A stretch of DNA of 64,000 nt, taken from Dysidea avara (taxonomy: Eukaryota; Porifera; Demospongiae; Dictyoceratida; Dysideidae). The stretch covers positions 27,260,765 through 27,324,764 of the forward strand of contig NC_089281.1 of the NCBI RefSeq assembly GCF_963678975.1, read 5' to 3'. The position numbers and the translations under genes were made by a program. How positions within the stretch are numbered: position 1 is the stretch's first letter; each line of letters opens with the position of its first letter. Below the pieces are notes generated by a model. That model saw only the letters and a program-made list of their open reading frames with translations. It made no database searches and was not told the DNA's origin. Shown here in pieces: positions 3,287 through 56,800 of the stretch.

Positions 3287-5626
3287 AAAATTGTTCTGTT
3301 ATGGCTGATTGATAAGTTGTAAAGCAGAATAAAGTGCATGGTTGGACATATATAGTTAGTTGGTAAAAGGAAAAAAAAATTCTGATTAAAAAATTGACTA
3401 TACTGATTCTGGTGATGCTGAAAGGTGTTTCAAATTTTTTTATGTCACAATTAAACACGGGGAGTTTTGAACTTTTCAGTAATCAAGCTCTATATCAGAG
3501 GCTATAGGCTGCACTCCCATGCAGACCCCTGGTACTCCTAGTAACTCGGTGCTGTTGGAAACCCCTTTGGCTATGCCCCTGCACCAAATACAAAGGTAGC
3601 TGGCTGCTAATTGGTGACAGAATATGAGCCCAGCCTTAAGCTTCATCATGGCTAGAGTCTCTATCCTCCTGAGAGGTTTTTCACTGGTGATGACATGACC
3701 TTTAAAAGTTTGATAATCACCATACAAGACTCGAAGTAAGTCCAGCTTGCTAGACAGCTTGAAGAGCTGCTTTGAATCATGTTCTTATCATTGCCACATA
3801 TCAACAATTTGGCAAAGTATACTGCAGATAGATCAGCTCTGTCCTATAATAGAAATGTTGTCAATGCCACTGTGCACCTAGTTTTGGGAGAGTATTTGAG
3901 CTAAGGTGGCTTCAACTTTTGAGACTGTTTAAAGGTTAAAGGTTTAAGTCTACAACCCTTTTGACATGACCTCCATGTCTGTATACCTGCAGGGTGATGA
4001 CATTTCCACTAATTTGTATCAATATCAAAATGAGTGATCTAGTCGGACAAATCACATTGTGACTCAGATATTACATTCCAGCTATCTGCATGCATGGCAC
4101 CTTCTTGATATGTGTTTGTGTAACAATGTAGCATTCATCACTACTAAAGTCAAAAGTCTTGATCACTTGATTTGTGAAGCAGGGGGAATGTCCCAGACCG
4201 GGTGGTGACTATAGCATTGTTTTAGACACTGTCTGCAAATATAAAATAGTAACAGAAATGTATTGTTCACTGAAATCAGTACAATCAGGATTCAGAAGCT
4301 GTAGCCAACAGTATCCAAATCCAATACAGATACAAAAGTTGGCAGTGCCACAGATATTTGATCTATCCACCTCCATTAAATAAAAATGCTAGTTTGACAC
4401 ATTGTCTATATCTTTTGTATGTTGTGCTTGTCCTTTTTGCAGCTGATGAAAGAGCTACTACTAGCTTCCATACAAATTTTGAAGTCACCCTCAGCAGTGT
4501 AGCTAGCCGGTAACTAGCTATATAAAAATGAATGACCAGATTGACCACACTAACAACATAGAACCAATGCAGCTATTGTACTAGTCCAACTCCACCAGAA
4601 TGGCAAGGTGGTGAAGTTAATTTTACATGTGACTATAATATTATAGTAATATATAATACACTTGTTCTGCATGTGCAACAATTTTTGCAATAATAAACTA
4701 TGATCACAAAATTTAAGCTATTACTCATTGCTAGCAGCAAAAACATAATATTTATACTGATTGGACAACTACAAACATTAAGAATACATAACGCACAAGA
4801 ATTTAAGTGCTGACCTGAAGATTGATAATTGAGACTTCTAAATGACCAATTCTTTGTTAGTATTAGGGTAAATTTTTTTATGGCAGTGTACAGCTATACT
4901 CATTACCATAATTGGACTACAGTATAGTGACATGCAAGGAGAGGAGGTATGCAGGGGAGAGCCTTTTATGGAGTCTGATATCTGGCTGCTTACTGGCTAT
5001 TAAGAGTTCATGAACTTTTTTGATACAAGAAATGTCATAGCCTTGCTCTCTAAACAATCCTCCCCCATTCTCTTGTCTGCGTATGAATTTTTATTCTTAT
5101 CAAAAGCAACACATGATAATAAAACCTGCTGAGCTCAAATTCACACACAGACCAGCATAAAGTGGTGACCTATACAATAATACTGCACAAGAGGGACCTT
5201 TGGGTATGGAACCTGTGAGATGGAGCTGCAAAATAGTATTCTAAGTTGTTAGACAAAATGCTCTCATGCTGGTACAACAATGACAGGACAAAATTGTGGG
5301 ATTCAGTTGGTCTCAATTAAGAGCCACCACATGTACAGTCTCAATTGTAAGCCACAGGAGACCACAATGTGATCATGAGTTACACTGAGAAGCCTATCTT
5401 AAGCAATACCTAAAGAGATTATGAAACACAACCTATTGATTTTCATGTATAGAAAATGGTAAATATATCAAATTCGATCAGCTAAGTGGGTGAATGTTGA
5501 GTCTGTCACTACCCTGTCTATATATAGCTCAAATTTCTACCTCTGCAGTTACTAAATATAGCTCATATTACTGCAAGTATTGTTCATAGCTTTTGGCTAT
5601 AATAAAAAAATATACAAACTTCTAAA
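3287..5626. other. Intergenic sequence, no gene recognised
   Basis: The sequence is AT-rich. It has only short open frames without domain signals and no splice-connected coding series. It lies downstream of the F-box gene, which is transcribed toward it, and contains that gene's 3' UTR. No RNA gene was recognised. Confidence 0.5.
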
Positions 5627-7376: not shown

Positions 7377-10300
7377 ATGTTGGCTGTGCTGTTGGTTATC
7401 TGTATTTCCGTAGTGGGAGCTGATATCAGTGACAATATCGGTATGTGGTCAATGTATGCTTTATTGTATTCAGATATGTAATTGTTATTTATTGTCAGCG
7501 ATTCATACTGTATGGAGTGTTTGTTATTTCCCTTCTTTGTGTAAATCATTATTTTTGTATACAAATTATCCTAATAAACAGTTGGTAGCATTTTTGTAAT
7601 GCAATAGGCCACCTACAATATAATAAACTTAATATGAGAAAAGAAACACTTTAATAGTGATGAAAAGGGGCTCAGAATGAACTACAGATTTGTAGTAGTA
7701 AAATATTTTGTTTAATTAATCGTAATCATGTACTATAATTACTTGTTTTTAGTAAGTAATTTAAATCAATTGTCTTGGTTTGGTTAGTGTTGCCATGGTA
7801 GCTAAAAGTTTTAATGATGCAACCTGGTTGTTTGCACTGAGGTGTTAATACTTGAATGACCACTAATTGCTAATTACTTAGACATTTTTTTAACAACTTG
7901 TGTCACTAAGTAATGTTTGCATACTTGAACATTCCAATAAATGCCTTCTACACACTTTTTCTGCTATGTAGTGGTAAATGTTACTCCAGTTCAACGAGTT
8001 CAACTTGATAAACAGGTTCTACTTGAATGTAACATGACCAGTAGTGATACCAGCAAAGTGTTAAGTGGTCTTGGGCTGGTCTGGTATGACGGGTTTATCC
8101 CCTTGACTCCTGTTATCAAGAGTATCACCAACCTGAAACATCGGATTGTTGTCAATGTATCAGTCAGTTCCTGGCTACATTATGGTCGCTATGTTTGTAA
8201 GGTTGAGAGTGAGACAGGGACCCTAGTGAAAAAGACTGCTATTCTACCACCAGGTAATAATAATAATAATATTGTTGACTGTATAACAGGCTTTATACAT
8301 GTAACATGATATGCTGGCTTCAATGCTAGCCTTGAAATCACAATAATAGTAGTGTAAATAGTAAATAGAGTGATGACTAATGTGTTAGATTGTGTTACTG
8401 TGTATCTGTTGTTTGGATGTGTATGGCATAATATATACGTGGTCACTGCATGTGTGAGGTTATCTATACTAGGCTTGTGCTATATATATACATGATGTAC
8501 TGGCACATGCACTTATTACACATACACATACTCACTATGTGACATGCACACGCAGACATACACACACGCGTGCACACACACACACACACACACGCGTGCA
8601 CACACACACACACATGTACACATAGATACTTACTGATTCATCTATTGATATAGGTATTGAAGAGGAACAACTAATACAAGAAAGTGGTCCATCTGACCCT
8701 GGGGAGTATATCATATCTTGTCCACTTACTTCCCATGACATCACCTGGTCTCTTCTAACAATAAACTACACCGAGCTAACACTGGAGCACCATAATTCCA
8801 GCTTTACACATGATCTGACATCCTATGAGAAATCTATTAAGGCATTGTGTTTTGGTGGAGGACACTACTCTATACAGTACATTTATCCTAAAGGTAAGCA
8901 AGTAACATGGTCTGATTTGTTGTTAATAGTGTATCCTTTAGATTATGAACCTGTGAGGTTTATCTTCCCTGCAGAAGAGAATTCCACCACTATATTCCCC
9001 AGTTTAGATCCAAAGTTAATAGAGTGCAGAACAACAGGCTCATTGCGTCCCAACATTACCTGGTTTCACGATGGGATGAAAGTAGAGAGTGACATAGTGC
9101 GACGCCTTCACATTGTCGAAGTGTCATCTAACCACCCACCCTATGTGCTGCAACTAAATATATTCAGCCCTGTACCATATGTTGATAGCGGTGAATATGT
9201 GTGTATGGTAGAAAACAAGTGGGAAGTAGTGAATCGTTCCTTACACATTCGGTTTTATATCCGTACTAAAGGTATGTGGTTTGTTGGTATTTTGTATTAG
9301 TTTTATATTTGTTATTATTTTGCAGACCATCTTATCATTACTACTTATTCTCCATTCCATTATTTATATGATGGAGTACAGTTTAAAGCCACATGTATTG
9401 TGCAAGCAAGTGTCTCCAACAATGGAGGGATCACTATGGCAATTACATATAAAAATCATACAACTGATTTAACTCCAACATGGACAGTGTCGACTCACAA
9501 GAAAGAACACGGAGACCGAGTTGCTTTTGATGTCCAAACAGAAGTTAAAGAAGGGAGCAGATGGTTTATTGCCACTGTAACAATCTCCAATGTTACCCAA
9601 ACCGATAGTGGCTATTATGATTGTATTGCAGCCAGTTTTGCTGATTCTAAAACAAATACTTCTCATGTGCAGTTCTTTAAAGGTAGCCTTAATGTGATTA
9701 CATCCATGTTTAGTTTACTTGTCTTTTAGTTCCTTTACAGATTATTGATTATGAGCCTGAGATGATTTTTGTGGAAGAGAAAACATCAGTGCTGCTTACA
9801 TGTGATATTAAAGTTGAGGACTTGTTGCTTGAATACGAGTTGTTCTCTATCTCATTTCATTTCTATGCCAAAGAAGAAGTGGCAGAGTTTTTATCTTACA
9901 ACCCTAATCTTCAGTTTTTTGATAACGGTACTATACGTGCTACACTGAATATATCACAGGCAGGCTACCAAGATGAAGGAATTTATGAGTGCTACGTACG
10001 GACATTGCCTGTTGAAAACTTCCTAATAAGTCCAACTGATCATTTTGATTTCTACATAGATGCTAGAAACACGTCTTTGAATGTGACAGCATCAGGTATG
10101 TGCAATGTGTTGGAGTAGGTGTTTGTGTGGATCAGTGAATTAATCTTTGATTAACTTGGCATAACTTAGGTAATGCTTTAGGTATGTGTGTTTATTATTA
10201 CCCAGCCTTAGCCAGTGGTAAGAAGTCAGATGATGCCTCTAATCGTACTACGATCATAGTTGTCAGCATTTTGAGTATCATATCTGTTGTCATCTTTGCT

Positions 10301-12605
10301 TGCATCATATTCCTAACTTGCTACATTGTCCGGAAACAGATGATGTTGTGGCGCTACAAAGCAAAGAGACTTCCTTCATTTACTGAAGATGTTAACCATC
10401 TTCTTCCAGGGTCACCAGAAATTCCTAGTGAAGCTACGCCAGACAAAAAATCTAGTTTGGTATGTTGTTGATTATAGTTTCTTGTTTGAGTTGTGTTTGT
10501 CTCCTTTGTAGTTGATGAAAGAAATAGTGACTAGTGGCTGGTATTTCCCTCATTCTGATCTCAAGTTTGAAGGCACACTTGGCAGTGGAGAGTTTGGCAT
10601 AGTGATGAGTGCCTTGGCCACTAACATAGAGCCCAACAAGCCTGTCTCAAAAGTTGCGGTGAAAATCTTACCAGGTACTAGCTAACAGAATTTGAATTCA
10701 GAATTTAAGCTTATCATTGACAGGACTTGGCAACGATGAGATTGAAGAAGATTTGAGAAAAGAATTGGCAGCCTTAAGTCTTGTTGGTGTCCACAAGCAC
10801 ATTGTGGGTATGATGGGAGCTAGTTACACAGAAGGTAATTAATGATGTTAATTAATTCTTGGTAAATGTCTTGTAAATGTGGGGCTTTGTCTGCGGAAAC
10901 ACTGTAAGTGTATAATTGTATATAGTTCTTCCTTATTGCATGGGTGTGGTTTCCAGAACCGTTCATTATCTTTTTGTGGCTACAGGAAAGCTTGAGATCA
11001 TTGTGGAGTTCTGTGCTAAGGGAAGCCTACTGCATTACCTTCGAGCAAAGAGAAACAGAAAAGAGAAAGAGCTTCATCCTTCAGAAGCTATGGATTATGG
11101 CCATCAAATTGCTCTAGGCATGAAATATTTGGCAGAAAAGAAGGTGACTTCATTGTTATGTTATATGACATGTCTTTATGATCATATTTTGTATCTATAG
11201 TGTGTTCATTGTGATCTCGCTGCCAGAAATGTTTTGATTACTGGAGATAACATCTTGAAAGTGTCTGACTTTGGTCTGGCCCGTAAACTTTATGATGAGA
11301 TATACAAGAAATCTAGGACCAGTAGAGTACGTAGATGTGCTCACCTAGCTGGACCATGTATGATGTTGTGCTATGTTGTTATACAGACACGTCTGCCGGT
11401 ACGATGGATGGCTATAGAGAGTATAAGAGACCTCAGTTTTACTACGGAGAGTGATGTGTAAGTATGCTATAATATGGTAGTGTCTATGTTACCTGTACTG
11501 GTTATGTAGTTGGGCATTTGGAATTGTTTTGTGGGAGATGATTCAACTTGGTGAGTGAAATATGTTGAAATCTCGTGTGTTATTTCATATACTCATTTGA
11601 TATACAGGCAGCAATCCTTATCCAGGTATTGAAAACAGGAAGATTCTTGGGCTGCTGAGACGTGGTTACCGTATGCCCCAACCTCAAGAGTGCCCTGATG
11701 AATTGTTAGTCTTGTTAACAACTTGAATGTGCTTGTTATTATTATTATTTTCTACTATTACTAGCTACCAGATTATGAGACACTGTTGGAAGACCCAGCC
11801 GTCAGATCGACCATCATTCACCAAGCTGGCTGCTCAACTAAAAGACCTCAAAGAGAAGTACAGCTCCTTACCACATGTAAGTCAAATTGAAATGGAAAGA
11901 AGCCAATTTGCTCAGTCTCATCACTTAGCAGCACAGCTGCCACAATTCAATACTCATCTCCCACTTAGATAATTTGTCTATTGTTGAAACGTTATCTACT
12001 ATCTTTAGGGTTATGTCAACTGGTCTAAGGAGTTGCCTATGACTACTGACCCTGCAGAAATGCTCTCATGTGGCAGTGACGTCACAGATGATGAGGGTGA
12101 GGACGAAGCTGAGCAACATGAAACTATTTGTCCTGTGCATGGGAGACTATCGGTGTCTGGTGAAGACTCTAAATTATTAGTCAACGTCCAGCATTCAGTG
12201 GATAGTGGAATCTCCAGCAGCACTGAGAACATACAGAAAAAAACTGAAAAGTCTTATGTGAATGCAACTAATTCCCTGTTCAAAATACATGATAGGTTAA
12301 GGCTGAAAAGTACTGACAGTGGTGTAGCCAGTACTCCATTAAGTCCGACTAACTCATCCTGCCCACTAGCGAAAACGCAGGCCTGCAGGATTGATAGTGG
12401 TATGCCTGATAGTCCCTGTGATATCAAGACTAGTCCACCATACACTAACATCACCGACTCATTCTCTCATTTCACTCCTCCTTCACCAACTGCCAGTGGT
12501 AATGTGTACTGTACAGACCCTACTACTTCTAGTAGAAAGATCAGTGCTCATCCAGATAACCGGCCCATGTTCCCTGCACTTGGCATTGAAGAATCTGATG
12601 TATAG
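7377..12605 (+). CDS. Receptor tyrosine kinase with extracellular Ig-like domains
   Basis: Sixteen exons joined by GT-AG sites in consistent phase: 7377-7440, 7972-8253, 8654-8893, 8942-9271, 9326-9682, 9730-10095, 10212-10459, 10512-10674, 10724-10834, 10986-11143, 11201-11326, 11387-11457, 11510-11550, 11608-11704, 11765-11876, 12009-12605. The product is about 1120 residues. It begins with a signal peptide (MLAVLLVICISVVGA). About five exons with Ig-like Cys/Trp patterns follow (for example DSGEYVCMVE and DSGYYDCIAA). The transmembrane helix is at about 560-586, then the tyrosine kinase: glycine loop LGSGEFG (652-658), VAVK (K680), DFG (796-798), RWMAIES and DVWAFGIVLWEM. The catalytic loop is HCDLAARN (776-783), so the HRD arginine is Cys. 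The Ser/Thr-rich tail carries DSGISS and DSGVAS. All introns bounding the Ig exons are phase 1. Ligand unknown. The gene class is certain but the subfamily is not. Confidence 0.92.
8541..8614. repeat. (CA)n microsatellite in receptor-kinase intron 2
   Basis: An interrupted CA repeat containing CGCGTG variants, located in the intron between 8253 and 8654. Short Val/Cys-rich frames across it are repeat artefacts. Confidence 0.9.
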
Positions 12606-16359: not shown

Positions 16360-17641
16360 ATTATTATTAATGGATGGATATACAAACAGGGTTACAAAAA
16401 TAAAGTTTAGGCACTAGGCCTTTGTTCATATCCATATCCTATGTCATTCCAATAATTATCAAGACTTGCTTTGAAAGTATAGATTGTTGGTGCTGAAACA
16501 ACTTCTGCTGGCAGGGAGTTCCATGTATTTATCACTCTCTGGGTGAAAAAATTCGACCTTAAAAGTAGACGTGATGGTTTTTTGAAAAGTTTCAAGTGGT
16601 GTCCTCTTGTGTGATGCACAGAGCTTAGAGTAAAGTACCTTGACCAGTCGATATCATAATAACCGTGTAAAAGCTTGTAAACTTCGATTAGTTCCCCTCG
16701 TTGTCATCGACAGTAAAGAGAATAGAGTCCGAGTTTTCTTAACCTTGACTCATAAGGTAGTTTGACTAGTTCATTCACAAGTTTAGTGGTCTGCCTTTGT
16801 ACATTTTCTAGAGTGTCAATGTCCCGGGCTAGATATGGACACTAAAGCTGGACACAATATTCTAGCTGTGGTCTAACATAAGTTTTATGCAGGAAGATAA
16901 ACAATTCTTTAGAGAATTTTGTAAATGTTCTTTTAAGCATTCCCAGGATTCTGGTTGCAGCAGCTGCAGCTTTATCACAGCGCAAGGAAGGTTTAAGAGA
17001 AGATGTTACCCATACGCCTAGATCTTTCTCAAAATCTGTCTTTGTCAACTCTACAGTAGACCCCAAAGTTTCCATTGTATAATTTGCTCCTGTGCTTTTA
17101 GGTATATGCATCACTTTGCACTTTTCTAAGTTAAGATTCAGTAACCAGATTCCATTCCATTCTTGCATGTTGATCAAGTCTCTTTGGAGTTTTGTCACAT
17201 CACATATGCTTTTAATTATTGAAAATATCTTTGTGTCATCTGCAAAAACACCTAATTCAGACTGGATAGCTTCGGCAATATCATTTATATATAACACAAA
17301 AAGCAGTGGACCCAGTACTGATACTTGAGGAACTCCACTAGTTACTCCAGTCCATTGAGACACACTTCCATTGAGTACTACCCTCTGGAATCTGCCAAAT
17401 AGGAAACTCTTCAACCTTAACAATAGACTCCCACCTATTCCGTATCCCTTCAACTTTCAATGAGCCTAAAATGGGGTACTGAGTCAAAAGCTTTGCTGCT
17501 ATAATCCAAGTAGATTACATCAACATCATAACCAGAGTCCACTGCATCTAGCCGAGTTAGCCGAGTTAGTTCTCTTGCTGCATACATGCCAGCAAGAGAA
17601 CTAACTCGGCTACAAAAAAAGAAAAAATCAGTGATTAACAA
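16360..17641 (-). pseudogene. CR1-like non-LTR retrotransposon fragment, 5'-truncated and disrupted
   Basis: Reading on the minus strand, the order is a reverse-transcriptase core with KAFDSVPH at about 17465, GVPQVSVLGPLLFVLYINDI at about 17335-17280, and the catalytic FADDTK at about 17245. A C-terminal block containing FFTQRVINTWNSLP ends at 16407. The frame is broken at least twice: a shift near 17450 and an in-frame TGA between 16842 and 16620. The 3' end runs into a short TAA/TTA repeat near 16360, as CR1-type elements do. The endonuclease region is missing. It is inactive. Confidence 0.88.
17560..17610. repeat. Perfect 21-bp hairpin at the LINE 5' junction
   Basis: The arms at 17560-17580 and 17590-17610 are exact inverted copies of GCCGAGTTAGTTCTCTTGCTG around a 9-nt loop. 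The hairpin lies where the truncated LINE sequence begins. Confidence 0.9.
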
Positions 17642-19331
17642 CTCTCACTTAGTAAGTTGAAAAGATTCCCTTTGTATACACTATAAGGCAGGTCCTAAGA
17701 TAAAAGTCCATACAACATGTACACTGCAAAGGACATGATACTGGTGTATTACACATATCTAGGCTTTATTTACACAATTTACATGGTCTATTATATTGAA
17801 GCTTACATAATGACATCAAGATATCAACCACGGCGGGTATTTCCCATGGAATTCCCTTCGACCACAATTGGTTTATTGGTAACATTACTTTAAAAACTAG
17901 TGGTTAAAGACTCTGTCGAGAGTCATTGCTTAAGTCTTCTGTACCTCTGTATCTTTGTCCAATCTGTCAAGGTATATAAGCAACAGCTGGACAACTCTAT
18001 ATTAGCTACTCTAGACAGTTTTTGAAGCCGACAATAATTAACCACTTCCACTTGCTCAGTCAATTTTTTCTGACACCATGCATGGAGGCTTAATTAATTT
18101 GTAACAACCATCCTAGCCACTTGGTGCATAGATGTCTAGCCTTCTTGGAATTTGGCCATGTAGCCAGAGATGCTGTGCTTGCTTAGTTTTTTGTCACCCG
18201 GCTCTGTGTACTTGCCTTTATATAGTCAGTGACCATGCACGCATCTCCTGTTGATGCCTTCACAGCGCGTGTATCCATGTGTACGGCTGTATGCCTTGCT
18301 TCTGCAAAATCCTCTACAATGTGTTCTATAACTACAGTGAAACTTGCAAGGATACTTGTGTATTAAGGACAGTCATACGTACCAACCAAATGTGCATGTC
18401 CTGAATATCAAGGTGCCCTGATTTTATAGCTAGGCCAGTTTAAATGCTATAATGGATAATTTGGGACTATTACCAAGTGTCCCGGCAGATTATGCTGGTG
18501 TGCCCATGCAAAGCTAGTAGACCTTCAATACTGTACCCCCAAACCATTGATATGCAGTATATTGCATGTAAAGCTGTGAAGTCATCAAATTAAAACTACG
18601 TATGTATTCAAACTGAATGCCAGAATGGATAGCATTAATACAATACAATACAATACAATACCTTAGCTATATTCAAAGTACTGCACATATAGAACGTGGA
18701 CTGTCACACATGTTCTTGTTCATCATCAGTGCCCCCCACAGTGATGGAGCTTATATCAATCAGAGTTAGCACTGACAGTACTGTAAATTTAGAAGTTAGT
18801 ATGAAGTTCATAATGGTAAGCTCCCTGCGGTCACTTAGTATGATGTACATACTTCCGACTCAGACTCATCATCATTACGGCGTGCATGTACATGTGGTTC
18901 AGTTATGGATTGTGGCAATACAGCTACTAAACTGTTAATACTGATGTGCTATAGTAGCACCTAAAACGCTAAGTAGCACCCACCCAAAAATGCTATGATA
19001 GCCGGCACCTATAGCTAAGTGTTAAATTTTGACTGCTTCGGTCAATAAATAGTGGCACTTCAGTCGAAGTACTACCATAGTGGTTCTGCATGAGCTCATT
19101 GTTGGTCTGTTGGTCTCAAAGAACATGATGAGGGTCAAAAAGAAGTGTAAAACCAGCTAGTAAGTCTGATAACAAAACATGGTCCCTGAGCTGAAGTACA
19201 ATGTTGTAAAATGTCGTTATTTTCCGGATATCTACTCCTTGGGGTACTCCCTAGCTACAAAAGATGTTTTGAATTTCTATGGCTTTCCAGGGAAATGATG
19301 TGGGGAAGAACCTTTCTTTGACGTCAAAACA
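17642..19331. other. Intergenic sequence, no gene recognised
   Basis: No coding series was found. An (ATACA)n tract lies at about 18638-18660. The last few hundred bases are the presumed promoter of the gene starting at 19332; an in-frame TGA at 19296-19298 closes the frame upstream of that ATG. Confidence 0.5.
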
Positions 19332-22300
19332 ATGGTAGAGAAGCACTTTGAATTGTGTTTCGAAGTAGTGAAGGACTCGTATGGTGATACGGAAGGATCA
19401 TGCTTTAAAGAGAACGAACTATCGGCGAAAGTATTCGAGCGATGGAAGGGACACCACGTTTTACTATACGGAAAACCAGGAGTTGGAAAAACCTGTTTAC
19501 TGAATCGACTAATAGTTAATTTTAAATCAGAAGGAACAATAGTCAGTAAAGTTGATGACATCGCTGAAATAAATGACCACAACTCTGACCGCCATTTTAA
19601 TAGTGTCACCACCCACGAGATAATTCTCATAGACAATGTAGAAAATACAACCTTACTAAGACAAGCACCTAACACTACTGTGTTAATGTTCTCTAGAACA
19701 ATGTCCCTAGACCACTGTGACTGTGTGATAGAGATCAAAGGGTTGCACTTGAAAAAAAATCCTACTGAATTATCTTGGAGTGATGGATTAGACACAATTT
19801 GTGTTGTTCCATTCCTAAATAAATTGTCCAGAATTTTGTTCAGCCAAAATAACTCATTGCACAACGTTTATTTGTTACTGTTAGCCAGCTATGTGAATTA
19901 CTGTCAAGCACTTTCCATAACTTTGTATGAATCCCTTTACAAAATTCCACAAGACGTTGAAAAATTTTTACGACAGTTATCGGGTGTTGCTTATACTTGC
20001 TCAAAGAATGATACTGAATTTTTGAATCTTGTTCAGCTACTGACACTATTTGGCTCGAATGTTGACTATGAGAAGTTTGGTGTTGTAACAAAGGTCAAAG
20101 ATGGAAGGTGGAAGTTTGCATTTGAAGGCATGCCACATTACCTGGCTGCATTCAAGATTCACTGGGACTCTGAAGAGCATGAATTTGGCAAGGATACTGT
20201 CCATATCAAACTGCCTAGTAAAGCCATGAAGCTTTTTAAAGGTAAGCTAGTTTCCTACTCTTAAATGCCACAAATCCCCATTACTTTTCCCCTTCACTTA
20301 TTTATGTCTTTTCTGTTTTATGCTGATAAAGCATAATAATATTGTTACATCATTGTATATGTTTGGCTTGTCACATGGAAATGAGGTCAGTCCAGATCAT
20401 CATTTTGTCAGTGTTTAAATGGTAATAATGCTGAGATAGTCATCATTGAGTCTTTATATGTTGTAATAGAAATGGTACCAGATAGCAAACCTGCTGGAGA
20501 TACTAAATGCATCCTTGATATTGATATAACTCAGCAGCCAACAGCATGTGAGGTGACCGAAGGAGGTTCGGTGTCCCTAGTGTGTGGGGCATCCATCTTG
20601 GGCCCACCAGGAATGGCCTTACCTACATTTCTTTGGTTCAAAAATGGCAAACCATTGATTGGAGAAGTATTGAACAAGTTGATAATTAATGATGCTTCTT
20701 CAAAAGATGATGGAGACTATGTGTGTTATGTGGCTGATGTCAATGAGAGGGTGAAAAAGGTGTCAAAGGCGGCAAAACTTTCAGTGAAAAGTTTACGACC
20801 AACTGCTCTATCTACTTCAACCATAAAAGGTACAAATACCCATCGGTTGTTACCATGTGTCCTTATTTTACATATCCACAGAACCGTCTAAGCTAACAAC
20901 GGATTTTCAACTAGTACTGAAAGAACTCGAGATGGATTTCAAAAGATACATTGACCTCGATTCATTGTTACCTCATCTCATGAAGAATGATTTACTGTCA
21001 CAAAGTGATTATTACATTTTTTCTAACCCGATGTTGACACCCACTGATCGCATTGACCGCCTCTTGGCAGCGGTGAAGACAAAAGGCCAAAACGGCTATG
21101 ACAAATTTTTTGCCAGCCTACAAGGGGAATACGAACACTTGGGTCACCACCATCTGTTGACTTTGATCAACAGAAGAGGTCAGTGATTGATGTTGATCCC
21201 ACCTTGATTGTTTTTGATCCCAATTTAATGTTGCTTTGTTTGTTTAACTCTGATTGTTATTATTTTAGGAGTAAGTCAACCATTTCAACATTTCAAATCA
21301 AAGGCAGTACCATCACAGTCTAATACTACTCAGATGTCCTCCATTACAATCACAACACAGCCAGAAGCTCAGGTTGAAGCCAAACCAGGGGAGAGTATTA
21401 TCATAATGTGTGGGGCTAGTGGCATGGGTCACCTACGCTATGAGTGGTACAAAGACGAACGATGTGTTGGCCAAGACCAAGTGCTAGAACTGAAACGCAT
21501 TGATGAAGAAGATACAGGATTATATCGCTGCAAGATCAGCGATACACATAATACTATATGGACTGACCCCACCATTGTAAAACTGAAAGGTAAGGGATTA
21601 TTTTATTTCCATTAATGGTGTCATACTTCCTGTTTACTAATAGCACCTGATCAGCCATTGCCCAAACATGGTAAGGAATGTAGTAGGAGTAATGTTGAAT
21701 CTGCATTAATTATTTATTCCCATTATGTAAAGATTTAGAGTTGACTGATCGCACATTGTCAGAGATAGCTGGCCAACTCACACACATTGGTGACAGATGG
21801 GAGAAACTAGGCTTTTACCTTAATGTTGATCAAAATACAGTGGCCAGAATTCGTTATGAACAACGTAGTACGATGTCCAAGATCTACCAGCTGTTGAGAA
21901 GATGGAGAGAGAAAACAAGAGATGCTTCGTGGGCACAGCTTGAACAAGCCATAAAATGGATTGGTGCATCACTTCAACCTCCACAAGGTGCAGTTGGTAA
22001 CTCAACACCAGAGTATACAAGACCTCCACCAAATGTTGCCAGTAAGTTCATCATCACATATCTGAGTAAATGCGTACACCTTGGCACTTGCCCATAGTCC
22101 CATTTGTGTAAGGTACACACTTTTAGACTCTCGACACCCGTCCATGGTTCCATTAGTATTAGCATACACACTGTGAAATAATCAGTACACCTAGATAAGC
22201 AGGATGGTCCCACCCTGAAATCAGGACACTTGCCCATGGTCTTATTTGTATTAGTGTACACACATTTAAACCTTCAAACTCAGGACATGTTACTAAGGAT

Positions 22301-23347
22301 ACTTACCAGTCCGGTTTGTGTTTACTTTTTTCACAAACAGGTTATGGATCTCCCGTGATATTTGTCCACCCCAGAAACCAGCAAGCTGTGGAGGGCAGCA
22401 CAGTAACATTGGAGGTGAAGGCTGGTGGAAATTCTCCATTGTTTTATCAATGGTATTGTGATAACAGACCCTTATATGGTATGTAAAGCATTGTCATGCT
22501 ACCGCTGACAATGTTACTGTTTATGGGATTGATGTTTTAGGTACAGTTATGCATAATTACTGTTTTCTTGTGTTTTGTATAGGTGAAAGAGACTACTTTA
22601 TTGTTATTCACAATGTGTCTTCAAGAAACACTGGCTCATATCATTGCCAAGTAACAAACATGCATGGTGTTGTCAACTCGGCTGCAGCCAGAGTTATGCT
22701 GATATCTGGAACTACTGGAAGTCAATATTTGATACCCAGAACTGTACCAGATGTGACCCATCATCCTGATATCAGGTATCCACCATCAGTACTTGCTATG
22801 AGCAACCAGCTGTCATCAATGATGGAAGGATCTCAGTCAACTCCTACTTCTTTAGATAAGACTTTTGAAAGAATTGATATTCCTGAGAAAAATATTCATT
22901 CACTTCCACCTAAGGATTCACAAGGTTAGTGATACAATCTTGAGTCAAAATATATTATGTTGACTTCACACACACACACGTGCACATGTGTACACACAGA
23001 CACACACACACGCTACACTCAAACACACATATGTGTACATGCTGAAAGGAAACTTCATGTACTTTTTTTGTCATATAGGTACTGGTAAACCAGTTATTAT
23101 TCAGCATCCAGTTGGTAGTAACCACACTGTGGGAGACCAGGTCACACTAGTATGTTATGCTAAAGGTGAACCTCCACTACGCTACTGCTGGGAGTTCAAT
23201 AAAATGTCATTGTTCTCTGAGAGGAATCCACAACTGATTATACCACAATTAACAACAGAAGACAGTGGATGGTACCAGTGCACAGTATCAAATAAGTACG
23301 GGAAAGTAACTAGTGATGCATGTAGACTGACAGTACGGAAAGTATAA
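19332..23347 (+). CDS. P-loop NTPase / Ig / CARD / Ig / Death / Ig / Ig protein
   Basis: Nine exons: 19332-20241, 20470-20829, 20882-21178, 21269-21589, 21644-21670, 21733-22041, 22341-22478, 22583-22924, 23079-23347; about 990 residues. Exon 1 encodes a STAND/NACHT-like NTPase with Walker A GKPGVGKT (47-54), Walker B IILID (97-101) and a following VLMFSRT strand. Exon 2 is an Ig domain (SLVCGAS...DDGDYVCYV). Exon 3 is a CARD-like helical domain (RIDRLLAAVKTKGQNGYDKF). Exon 4 is Ig (IIMCGAS...DTGLYRCKI). Exon 6 is a Death domain (EIAGQLTHIGDRWEKLGFYL). Exons 7-8 and 9 are Ig domains (NTGSYHCQV; DSGWYQCTV). There is no signal peptide or membrane helix, so it is predicted to be cytosolic. Every intron is phase 1. 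Known relatives: NLRs combine NACHT with CARD/Death, and MALT1 combines Death with Ig. I know of no protein with this full order. A role as an immune or cell-death scaffold is inferred from the domains only. Confidence 0.86.
22042..22340. repeat. Three degenerate repeats in intron 6 of the NTPase gene
   Basis: The unit (CACTTGCCCATRGTC, then ATTTGTRTTAG, then GTACACAC) recurs starting near 22083, 22134 and 22227. A similar stretch occurs near 62680-62760. It is non-coding. Confidence 0.6.
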
Positions 23348-53899: not shown

Positions 53900-56800
53900 T
53901 CATGGAGAGCGATGGAGATGATTGAAGGATCTGTAGAGTCAGACCTAATCCCAACTTTTGCCATCTATTGTCCACAGGACCTCATTATGTTGATAGGAAG
54001 TTGTGGCAGTTGCTGGTATACAGGAAACCAAATGGTTTGGTCAGGATGTTTGGAATGCGGATGGATTTACTTTGTTACATTCAGGGTGCACTTTGCCTTT
54101 TGATGGTGAACCACTCTTGAGAAATGAAGGTGTAGGCATTGTGCTTGATCATTGTGCTACTGCTGTATGGAAGAATGCTAGGGAAGCTGTCAGTTCCAGA
54201 ATAGTGACAGCTCGGTTGCAGATTGTGCAGCGTGGACATAGACGATGTGGAGGTTCTAGGTGGACTAGTAGTAGGTATCTATCACTAATATCAGCATATA
54301 CTCCCACAGCCAAGGCTCCTCCAGGTGTTAAGGCAAAGTTTGTTGATAATCTTCAATGCACATTGGATGCTCTTCCTGTTGGTGATATTGTGACAGTGCT
54401 AGGTGACTTTAATGCTCGAATTGGGAAAAGGGAATCTGAAGATGATGTCTGGAGGGAGGTCAGAGGATTGCATGGTATTGGCACTTGTAATGAAGCTGGT
54501 GGAACAGCTCCTGGAGCTGTGTAGTTTGACCATAATGAGCACTTGGTTTGAGAAGAAGCCAATACACTTGGGTACATGGATACACCCTGCTACTAAACAG
54601 ACTCATGTGATTGACTTTGTGATGATGAGGAAGGATCAGCGACAGTTGTGTACTGATGTAAGAGTGTGCAAGAGTGCTTGCAGTTGGACAGACAACTATT
54701 TGGTGAAAGGAAAGTTAATGTAGAACATTTCTAGGAAGCAGAGGAGTAGTGTTACTCATGTGCCTCTGGCAGTCCACCTCTTAAGAAGTTGGGAAGTAAA
54801 GAATAGATACCAGCAATCCCTTGAACAACACTTGCTTCAACATCAATATAACAAGGAAGAGTCGGTGGAGGAGCAGTGGCAGGCATTAAAGGAGTGCATT
54901 ATGATGCAGCTGTTGGATGTGCAAGGGAGAAGCAGCCAGATTGGTTTATTGATGCTACAGATATACTAACACCCCTACTGGATGACAAGGCTAGAACTCG
55001 TCAAAGGTATTTGCAGTTACAGAGTTCTTCTGCCAAGCGTGAATTCCAACTATGCTAGAGGTTGGTGAAAAGGGCTGTGGATGAGGCTAAGGAGACATGG
55101 ATTAGTAAGGTGATCAGTGATGCTGAGCATAGTCGAGATAGTCGAGATGGGAAACTGAGATGGGATTGTATTAAGAAGTTGCTGGCAGCCTTTCATGGAA
55201 GACAGCCTGCTCATTCTGTCAGACAAGATGGTACTACAGGACCTGAAGAGCTTAAACAGCTTTGGTATGGATATTTTAGCCAAGTACTGAACGTAACCAG
55301 TCAGTGTGATCAAGAATTAATTGATGAAATGCCATCCTGGGAAACCGCAATGTAATGTCTTGATGATCCCCCTACCTCTGATGAACTGGTAGATGCTATG
55401 GAGAAAATGAAATGGGGGAAGGCTGGAGGGAGGACTGGTATCTTACCTGAATTAATACTTTGTGGAGGCCCAGAAATACAGCACAGATTATTGGTGTTAA
55501 TGAAGGAGGTATGGAAGGAAGGATGTGTAGTTCAGGACTGGAAAGATGCAGAAATTGTTCCCATACCTCCTAAGAAAGGAGATCTTAGGAATTGTGATAA
55601 CTGGAGGGGAATCAGTTTGTTGGATGTGGTTGGAAAGTTGGTTGGACATATACTGCAAAATAGGCTTCAGTTGATTGCCGAAAAGGTCCTCCTTGAGTCT
55701 CAGTGTGGCTTCCATAAGGGAAGAGGGTCTGTAGATATGATTTTTACAGCTAGGCAGTTATTTGAGAAGAGCAGAGAACATGATGCCTCTTTTTCTGCAC
55801 TCTTTGTTGACCTCCGCCAGGCATATGACTCAGTATCTAGAGAGGCCTTGTGGCAGGTATTGCAGAAATGTAGTGGTCCAGTGATGTCACTGATCAGGTC
55901 ATGTCATGATGGCATGACTGCTGTGTGATGGCACCACTGCATTAGGAATGGGCTGAGATAAGGATGCACCATGGCACCAGTTTTGTTCAATTTGTATTTT
56001 GCAGCAATGGTTGCTTGTTGGAGGAGTCACTGGAGTCACTGTGAAGTATAAGATAGGGAGGAACCTTGTGGGAGATAGAACAGTTAAAGCAAAGCTTGAG
56101 GATACAGAAATTACAGAGTCAAAGTTTGCATTGTATGCAGTCACTAGTCAAGGGGTGAAGAGAGTAGCTGTGACCTTTGTAGCAACAGCAGCAGGATGGG
56201 GACTTACTGTTAGCTTAAAATGATGACAATGGGGTACCCTAAGGACAACATGCCTGTACAGTTGGAGGATGGTGTAATAGCTGCAGTTGATAATTTCACT
56301 TGTCTTGGAAGTAACATCACTAATGATGGTGAAATTGTCAATGAAGTGAGTGCAAGATTGGGCAAGGCTGCGAGAGCATTTGAATGTTTGCGGCCCTCCA
56401 TCTTTGATAATAGGGCTCTTAGTGTACAGATTAAGAGAGGTGTGTATCGTGCTGTAGTGATGTCTACTTTATTGCATGGATCTGAAGAGTCCTAGTATTA
56501 GATGTTTGGAGGGCTTTCACAATCGCTGTATCCGGGTAATTTTGGGTGTGTCTAGAACTAGGCAATGGAAGGAAAGAATAACATCTAAGGAACTGGCTAG
56601 TCAGTTTGGAATGAATGAGAACATGGCTGATATTATTGAGAGATATCGATGTAGGTGGCTAGGGAATTTGGCACGGATGGATAATTATAGAATACCTAAG
56701 CATTTACTTTTTGGTAAGCTGATTAAAACCTGACCAAGACATGGCCATAAGAAACGATGGAGAGATCTGGCAGTGATGGATGTAAGGACACTTGGGATTG

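What the first reader, a model, noticed from the sequence alone, without database searches (positions are those of the whole stretch)
19332..23347. A cytosolic NTPase-Ig-CARD-Ig-Death-Ig-Ig protein: an apparently undescribed immune-type architecture
The spliced frame joins a Walker A/B NTPase to four Ig domains interleaved with a CARD-like and a Death domain, with no signal peptide or membrane helix. NLRs pair NACHT with CARD/Death but use LRRs. MALT1 pairs Death with Ig but has no NTPase. A protein with Ig domains in the place of a sensor array would be a distinct class of STAND-type receptor or scaffold.
Basis: partly seen in the sequence, partly recalled or inferred. Interest (0 to 1): 0.9.

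Follow-up and report, generated by a model that had tools for sequence, protein, structure and literature searches.

The report
Sponge switch protein with Ig-death domains
A gene, probably from a sponge, appears to join a switch-type ATPase to alternating antibody-like and cell-death-signalling domains inside the cell; the parts and near relatives are known, this combination was not found described.

Summary
Nine GT-AG exons at 19332-23347 (+), all eight introns phase 1, give an unbroken 990-residue frame. Pfam finds, over its cut-offs, an NTPase of STAND type in exon 1 (31.9 bits), a CARD (44.8), a Death domain (41.9) and four Ig domains, ordered NTPase-Ig-CARD-Ig-Death-Ig-Ig. Hydropathy shows no membrane helix. 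Exon 1 resembles NACHT domains of this genome, mostly through its P-loop. The 550.8-Mb genome fits the demosponge Dysidea avara (inference).

The NTPase exon is single copy; part of the rest has one decayed duplicate. Closest kinds: MALT1 (Death-Ig-Ig) and sea-cucumber Ig+NACHT membrane receptors. The same genome also holds a MALT1-type paracaspase behind Ig exons and apparent membrane Ig-CARD-Death receptors. Eight paper searches did not show this architecture; a D. avara transcript with 'Ig domains and a CARD domain', induced by microbial patterns, is in print and could be this gene or another.

Best reading: a cytosolic, STAND-driven death-fold scaffold with MALT1-like Ig modules. That exon 1 is spliced to the rest needs a transcript. 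New variant of a known kind.

The parts
19332..20241 (+). Exon 1: STAND/NACHT-like P-loop NTPase (residues 1-303); Walker A GKPGVGKT at residues 47-54 (19470-19493), Walker B-like IILIDNVE at 97-104 (19620-19643), FSR at about 120-122
   Evidence: Pfam nSTAND3 31.9 bits; hhalign to six NACHT frames of this genome, prob 96.8, mostly P-loop; no second copy
20242..20469 (+). Intron 1 (phase 1), the junction on which the fusion claim rests; no AATAAA/ATTAAA inside
20470..20829 (+). Exon 2: Ig domain 1
   Evidence: Pfam Ig_2 33.9, Ig_3 34.1, I-set 31.7 bits, all over cut-off
20882..21178 (+). Exon 3: CARD
   Evidence: Pfam CARD 44.8 bits, cut-off 23.9; best solved structure CARD11, E 4.5e-5
21269..21589 (+). 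Exon 4: Ig domain 2
   Evidence: Pfam Ig_3 36.3 bits, cut-off 30
21644..21670 (+). Exon 5: 27-nt micro-exon, phase 1-1 linker
   Evidence: splice sites and phase; 24 of 27 bases the same in the partial copy
21733..22041 (+). Exon 6: Death domain and proline-rich linker
   Evidence: Pfam Death 41.9 bits, cut-off 22.6
22341..22478 (+). Exon 7: first half of Ig domain 3
   Evidence: Pfam Ig_3 31.9 bits
22583..22924 (+). Exon 8: second half of Ig domain 3 and a long linker
   Evidence: I-set 20.9 bits, under cut-off on its own; joined with exon 7 it matches Ig structures
23079..23347 (+). Exon 9: Ig domain 4 and stop codon
   Evidence: Pfam Ig_3 53.5 bits

Best explanation
A cytosolic signalling protein of a demosponge. 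Exon 1 is a reduced, divergent NACHT-like STAND ATPase that acts as the on/off and oligomerisation switch. The remainder is a scaffold in which a CARD and a Death domain are held between Ig modules. On activation (trigger unknown) the ATPase oligomerises the chain, so that its CARDs and Death domains come together and seed death-fold assemblies that recruit CARD- or Death-domain partners such as caspases, adaptors or paracaspases; the Ig modules act as protein-binding spacers as in MALT1, rather than as a sensor array. Shown: gene anatomy and domain identities. Inferred: expression as one protein, ATP binding, oligomerisation, partners, immune role.
For: Domains, order and phase-1 cassette exons. 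Canonical Walker A, a Walker B-like strand with a second acid at +3, and FSR where NACHT has TSR (sequence). The two best Pfam matches of exon 1 are nSTAND3 and ATPase_2 (the latter under its cut-off; that it is a STAND relative is recalled). hhalign to six frames that Pfam calls NACHT (6 of 6, 72.5-97.2 bits): score 76.3 against at most 24.2 in 30 shuffles; with residues 1-64 left out, 30.0 against at most 27.8 in 100 shuffles. Ig3 matches a MALT1 Ig (3k0w, E 8.8e-12). For Ig4, after the protein's own Ig3, the best match in a set of 52 Ig domains is an Ig beside this genome's MALT1-type paracaspase, 41% over 58 residues; in the genome search the three such loci rank 3rd, 10th and 12th of 150 scored matches, self included.
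Against: Pfam NACHT is under its cut-off (16.0 against 26.7 bits), and after the top two the matches of exon 1 are a mixture of generic P-loop families. Residues 1-64 alone score 54.7, so most of the NACHT signal is the P-loop; residues 222-303, where a winged helix should lie, gave none (41 of 100 shuffles as good). AlphaFold without an alignment failed (pLDDT 33.5). The Death domain's best solved relatives are RIPK1, ankyrin-3, PIDD and CRADD at E 0.013 and worse; no MALT1 Death domain among 11 matches. Contactin, Fc-receptor-like 5, titin, CEA and tail-protein Ig domains outscore MALT1. For Ig2, ten other Ig domains, and for Ig3 five, score better than the paracaspase Ig, and the Ig tree is unresolved.
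Confidence: 0.42

Rival explanations
1. One reading: an NLR-like receptor whose Ig domains are the ligand-sensing array, replacing LRRs.
For: Ig domains of a sea-cucumber Ig+NACHT receptor bind microbes directly (PMC8699970, abstract and passages). Sponge TLR-like receptors use Ig in place of LRR (PMC12909245 passages). Three of four Ig domains keep the usual cysteine pair, Ig3 lacks the first (positions, pairing by eye).
Against: The Ig domains are interleaved with the signalling domains rather than forming one C-terminal array; no membrane helix; no second copy of exon 1, unlike an expanded receptor family.
Confidence: 0.2
2. Two genes: exon 1 is a single-exon NTPase gene with its stop at 20262-20264, and an Ig-CARD-Ig-Death-Ig-Ig gene starts at the ATG at 20472.
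For: The exon 1 frame runs only about 20 nt past the donor to a stop; exon 2 has an early ATG with A at -3 and G at +4. No transcript was available.
Against: The intron 1 donor AAAG|gtaagc scores 9.58 on a matrix of the seven other donors; only 8 sites on the + strand of the 64-kb window reach that, itself and four other donors of this gene among them (the four helped to make the matrix); phase matches all seven other introns; no AATAAA or ATTAAA between 20242 and 20469.
Confidence: 0.14
3. A pure scaffold: the NTPase no longer hydrolyses or binds nucleotide and only holds the chain.
For: Short module (303 residues), no support for the winged-helix part, Walker B-like strand with N after the first D.
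Against: Walker A fully canonical; open frame with no decay.
Confidence: 0.12
4. A secreted or membrane protein whose first exon (signal peptide or anchor) lies upstream and was missed.
For: Three Ig domains keep cysteine pairs (by eye); the same genome has apparent Ig-TM-CARD-Death receptors.
Against: No membrane helix in 990 residues; CARD and Death between Ig domains would sit outside the cell; the exon 1 frame opens at 19299, and I saw no good acceptor between there and the ATG (by eye).
Confidence: 0.05

Closest known systems
MALT1 / type 1 paracaspases (Death-Ig-Ig-caspase-like-Ig)
   Same: Death domain directly followed by two Ig domains; no membrane helix; Ig3 and Ig4 match MALT1 Ig among others, Ig4 an Ig beside the genome's own MALT1-type paracaspase
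   Different: No caspase-like domain seen, an NTPase, CARD and two further Ig domains in addition; Death domain not nearest to MALT1
NLRs (CARD- or Death-NACHT-LRR), including sponge NLRC/NLRD
   Same: STAND/NACHT-like switch plus death-fold signalling domains in one chain
   Different: NTPase is N-terminal, no LRR, both CARD and Death present, Ig domains interleaved; Pfam NACHT under cut-off, so a NACHT survey at that cut-off would miss it
Sea-cucumber AjNLRC4 and AjNLR-new (Ig + NACHT; PMC8699970, PMC13133943)
   Same: Ig and NACHT in one protein
   Different: Described as membrane receptors, AjNLRC4 without CARD; here no membrane helix and two death-fold domains
Oyster HEPN-Ig-DED-TRADD-N proteins (PMC8195603)
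   Same: Lineage-specific immune-type proteins combining Ig repeats with death-fold domains
   Different: HEPN RNase, DED and TRADD-N instead of NTPase, CARD and Death
Apparent Ig-TM-CARD-Death receptors of the same genome (C11:20.69-20.84 Mb; no dedicated paper search made)
   Same: Ig, CARD and Death in one apparent gene
   Different: A hydrophobic helix, CARD and Death together in one open frame, no NTPase seen (splicing not worked out)

Membership tests
STAND NTPases | P-loop with Walker A, Walker B and sensor motif of STAND type | tested here: met
   GKPGVGKT, IILIDNVE, FSR by eye; nSTAND3 31.9 bits over cut-off, but that profile also rings in 14 of 14 controls
STAND NTPases | Helical and winged-helix domains after the nucleotide-binding fold | tested here: inconclusive
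   Aligned to NACHT over residues 43-221; residues 65-303: 0 of 100 shuffles as good, residues 222-303: 41 of 100
NLR | NACHT domain by Pfam | tested here: inconclusive
   16.0 bits, cut-off 26.7; six other frames of the genome score 72.5-97.2
NLR | C-terminal leucine-rich repeats | tested here: not met
   C-terminal exons are Ig; no LRR among the 25 shown of 40 Pfam families
NLR | N-terminal death-fold effector domain | tested here: not met
   NTPase is N-terminal, CARD and Death lie behind it
MALT1 / type 1 paracaspase | Death domain followed by Ig domains | tested here: met
   exons 6-9
MALT1 / type 1 paracaspase | Caspase-like peptidase domain | tested here: not met
   No C14 among the 25 shown of 40 families; the gene ends after Ig4 and the next gene is Sec20 on the other strand
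MALT1 / type 1 paracaspase | Death domain of MALT1 kind | tested here: not met
   11 PDB matches up to E 10, none MALT1
CARD-CC (CARD9/11) proteins | CARD followed by coiled coil | tested here: not met
   CARD's best solved relative is CARD11, but an Ig exon follows, and the CARD shares the EHxGH tail of many CARDs of this genome
Ig+NACHT membrane receptors of sea cucumber | Transmembrane helix | tested here: not met
   hydropathy at most 1.43

The most novel reading that the evidence does not exclude
A single-chain signalosome: one cytosolic protein that carries its own ATPase switch, its own CARD and Death nucleation domains and MALT1-like Ig modules, and works with the sponge's Ig-bearing paracaspases. 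It would be a one-protein counterpart of the CARD-BCL10-MALT1 complex in a lineage for which PMC5978004 lists type 2 paracaspases, and a class of STAND protein with interleaved Ig and death-fold domains.
Probability: 0.12. Interest if true: 0.85.

Novelty: new variant of a known kind. Interest (0 to 1): 0.55.

Why it matters
If expressed as one chain, it shows that an early-branching animal joined an NLR-type switch to MALT1-like Ig/Death modules and used Ig domains inside the cell for immune or death signalling. It is one concrete gene on which to test whether CARD/Death/Ig scaffolds of the CBM type existed before the cnidarian-bilaterian ancestor. The MALT1-type peptidase behind Ig exons in the same genome bears on the same question: PMC5978004 (passage read) lists type 2 paracaspases, without Ig, for porifera and dates type 1 to before the cnidarian-bilaterian ancestor.

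Tried and rejected
CARD11/CBM membership: the CARD's best PDB match is CARD11, but 'TKG..GY' and the EHxGH tail occur in other CARDs of this genome, so no orthology is claimed.

nSTAND3 as a precise family name: rejected, since the profile rings in 14 of 14 controls and also matches six NACHT frames of this genome at 25.6-30.3 bits.

Structure of exon 1: single-sequence AlphaFold gave pLDDT 33.5; no fold search was run on it, and the second structure job was not used.

Relatives elsewhere: the search for related loci confirmed none in viral contigs (exon 1) nor in prokaryote genomes (spliced protein). PADLOC and NCBIfam gave generic P-loop matches for exon 1, none near an NCBIfam cut-off among the 25 shown of 29. 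No other animal genome is held, so conservation in other sponges is untested.

Second copies: of 149 other scored Ig4-like places in the genome (150 scored of 1158 candidates), 0 lie within 20 kb of 149 other Death places or 149 other CARD places (126 and 23); one lies 43.6 kb from a Death place; 3 lie within 25 kb of a caspase-like peptidase place, for which 43 distinct of the 89 places were entered. These lists are capped and missed the Ig of the membrane Ig-CARD-Death family, so they do not prove uniqueness.

The confidence of the best explanation was lowered from 0.45 to 0.42 and that of the two-gene rival raised from 0.12 to 0.14 on re-reading (after the top two, exon 1's Pfam matches are a mixture; most of the NACHT signal is the P-loop).
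Full report
Check of the observation. The region was re-read and spliced by script. Nine exons with GT-AG borders, all eight introns in phase 1, give 990 residues without a stop. Pfam places, over the curated cut-offs, nSTAND3 on exon 1 (31.9 bits, cut-off 27.2), CARD on exon 3 (44.8; 23.9), Death on exon 6 (41.9; 22.6) and Ig domains in four stretches (Ig_3 151.9 bits for the chain; frame by frame). Phase-1 domain cassettes are a classic mark of exon shuffling (established knowledge). Hydropathy shows no membrane helix (maximum 1.43 over 19 residues) and the N-terminus is polar.

Is exon 1 part of the gene? The intron 1 donor scores 9.58 on a matrix made from the other seven donors; only 8 sites on the + strand of the window score as high, and five of these are donors of this gene, itself included (the other four helped to make the matrix and are not independent). 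Its phase agrees with all the others, and no AATAAA or ATTAAA lies in intron 1. Against this, the frame of exon 1 reaches a stop about 20 nt beyond the donor, and exon 2 has an early ATG, so two adjacent genes are not excluded.

What the NTPase is. Walker A is canonical, the Walker B-like strand reads IILIDNVE, and FSR stands where NACHT proteins have TSR. After nSTAND3 and ATPase_2 the Pfam matches are a mixture of P-loop families, and NACHT stays at 16.0 bits (cut-off 26.7). Searching this genome with nSTAND3 gave seven places; the window's was the best, and the six others are long frames that Pfam calls NACHT (6 of 6, 72.5-97.2 bits), three of them with a NOD2 winged-helix match and one with an LRR match at its cut-off. 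Compared with an alignment of those six, exon 1 gives hhalign probability 96.8 and score 76.3 over residues 43-221, against at most 24.2 in 30 shuffles. Residues 1-64 alone give 54.7; residues 65-303 give 30.0 against at most 27.8 in 100 shuffles; residues 222-303 alone give nothing. A reduced, divergent NACHT-like module is the best reading, not a proven one. Structure prediction without an alignment failed.

Surroundings. Upstream lies an Ig-bearing gene at about 7.9-12.6 kb whose downstream frames read like a receptor tyrosine kinase (by eye); a reverse transcriptase fragment lies at 16845-17456 on the minus strand; downstream are Sec20 on the minus strand and an NSD-type methyltransferase at about 25.7-28.4 kb. 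The window is G000:C10:27260765-27324764 of a 550.8-Mb genome in 108 contigs. From the contig lengths (C2 not shown, at least 54.2 Mb) I reckon an N50 of 40.5 Mb, with fifteen contigs of at least 9.7 Mb. This fits Dysidea avara as published (575 Mb, N50 41 Mb, 162 scaffolds, 15 chromosomes; PMC12909245, abstract and passages).

Copies. Exon 1 has no other match in the genome up to E 1 except one at E 0.129 with stops. The CARD has 89 other matches up to E 0.01, the best-scoring at 34% identity. The Death exon has one close copy 1.9 Mb away on the same contig and the other strand, covering window 21647-22934, with exons 89-98% and introns 5-7 91-94% identical, a 26-nt insertion in the Death exon and loss of the exon 7 donor: a decayed partial duplicate. 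Death and CARD domains are common in this genome (at least 150 and 127 matches).

Kinship of the Ig and death-fold parts. Among solved structures Ig3 matches an 'immunoglobulin-like domain protein', a 'tail protein', titin, Fc-receptor-like 5, CEA and then MALT1 (3k0w, E 8.8e-12), so MALT1 is one of several. Within the genome Ig2 finds two and Ig4 three Ig places on C11 (25.43, 25.89, 25.97 Mb) that lie 4.1, 4.3 and 24 kb from caspase-like peptidase places; the second peptidase match holds six stop codons and the third one. At the first, the peptidase frame matches only MALT1 among solved structures (10 of 10 matches up to E 1, best 1.2e-22) and is preceded by two Ig domains in one frame (Pfam); a third Ig there is seen only by my own Ig profile. 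No Death domain was found in the five frames scanned of the 6 kb further upstream (the rest by eye). In a set of 52 Ig domains the paracaspase Ig is the best match of Ig4 after the protein's own Ig3, but stands behind ten others for Ig2 and five for Ig3; the tree does not resolve who is nearest. The CARD's best solved relative is CARD11 (E 4.5e-5), the Death domain's is RIPK1 (E 0.013).

How it most likely works. Shown: the anatomy. Inferred: the STAND module switches with nucleotide and oligomerises the chain; CARD and Death are thereby clustered and seed assemblies; Ig modules bind partners or keep spacing, as in MALT1. The trigger is unknown.

What is known. Eight paper searches were run; none of the listings or passages that I read describes this architecture. 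Passages were read in PMC12909245, PMC8699970, PMC5978004, PMC8195603 (section 10 whole), PMC6321704, PMC11797021, PMC8242945, PMC13133943, PMC6208332 (first of two parts of section 14), PMC2575513 and PMC11229196; supplements could not be read. Known neighbours: Ig+NACHT membrane receptors in sea cucumber; HEPN-Ig-DED-TRADD-N proteins in oyster and death-fold/TRADD-N expansions in Amphimedon; sponge NLRs with CARD or Death; NACHT genes of D. [quoted passage not shown]). PMC6208332 Table 5 lists a D. avara 'gene containing Ig domains and a CARD domain' (TR154561_c0_g1) up at 1 h (log2 fold change 10.5, FDR 4.3e-4) after microbial patterns, beside a CRADD-like Death-domain gene and TRAF2. Whether it is the window gene, the membrane Ig-CARD-Death family or another cannot be told without its sequence.

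Verdict. A well-formed gene model with the stated domains; most likely a STAND-driven death-fold scaffold with MALT1-like Ig modules; new variant of a known kind. Interest 0.55, because conservation, expression and the exon 1 fusion are untested, and lineage-specific shuffling of death-fold domains is well documented in marine invertebrates (PMC8195603).

Noticed in passing
L084 (G000:C11:25424500-25431500, minus strand); also L082 (C11:25.89 Mb) and C11:25.97 Mb: A caspase-like frame whose 10 solved-structure matches are all MALT1 lies behind two Pfam Ig domains and a third Ig-like stretch; two more Ig places lie near peptidase matches that hold stops. PMC5978004 lists type 2 paracaspases, without Ig, for porifera. 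No Death domain was found in five frames scanned of the 6 kb upstream.
   Followed up: partly
L083 7259-9900 with L044 (G000:C11:20.69 Mb); L046, L035, L058 (to 20.84 Mb): Apparent membrane receptor: Ig (Ig_3 31.6 bits), a hydrophobic helix by eye, then CARD (35.3) and Death (28.9) in one frame. L046 and L035 look alike (L035 Death 18.0, under cut-off); L058 shows CARD and Death by my own profiles.
   Followed up: partly
L068 (G000:C10:25344500-25354400) about 3955-5242, minus strand: Decayed partial duplicate of window 21647-22934 (micro-exon to exon 8), 1.9 Mb away, with an insertion in the Death exon and a lost splice donor.
   Followed up: yes
window 7941-12602 +: Gene with Ig domains followed by frames that read like a tyrosine kinase (HCDLAARN by eye).
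   Followed up: no
G000:C9:3.10-3.50 Mb: Dense cluster of caspase-like peptidase (C14) matches, 31 of the 89 in the genome, some with stops.
   Followed up: no
window 16845-17456 - and 55356-55925 +: Reverse transcriptase fragments of retroelements.
   Followed up: no
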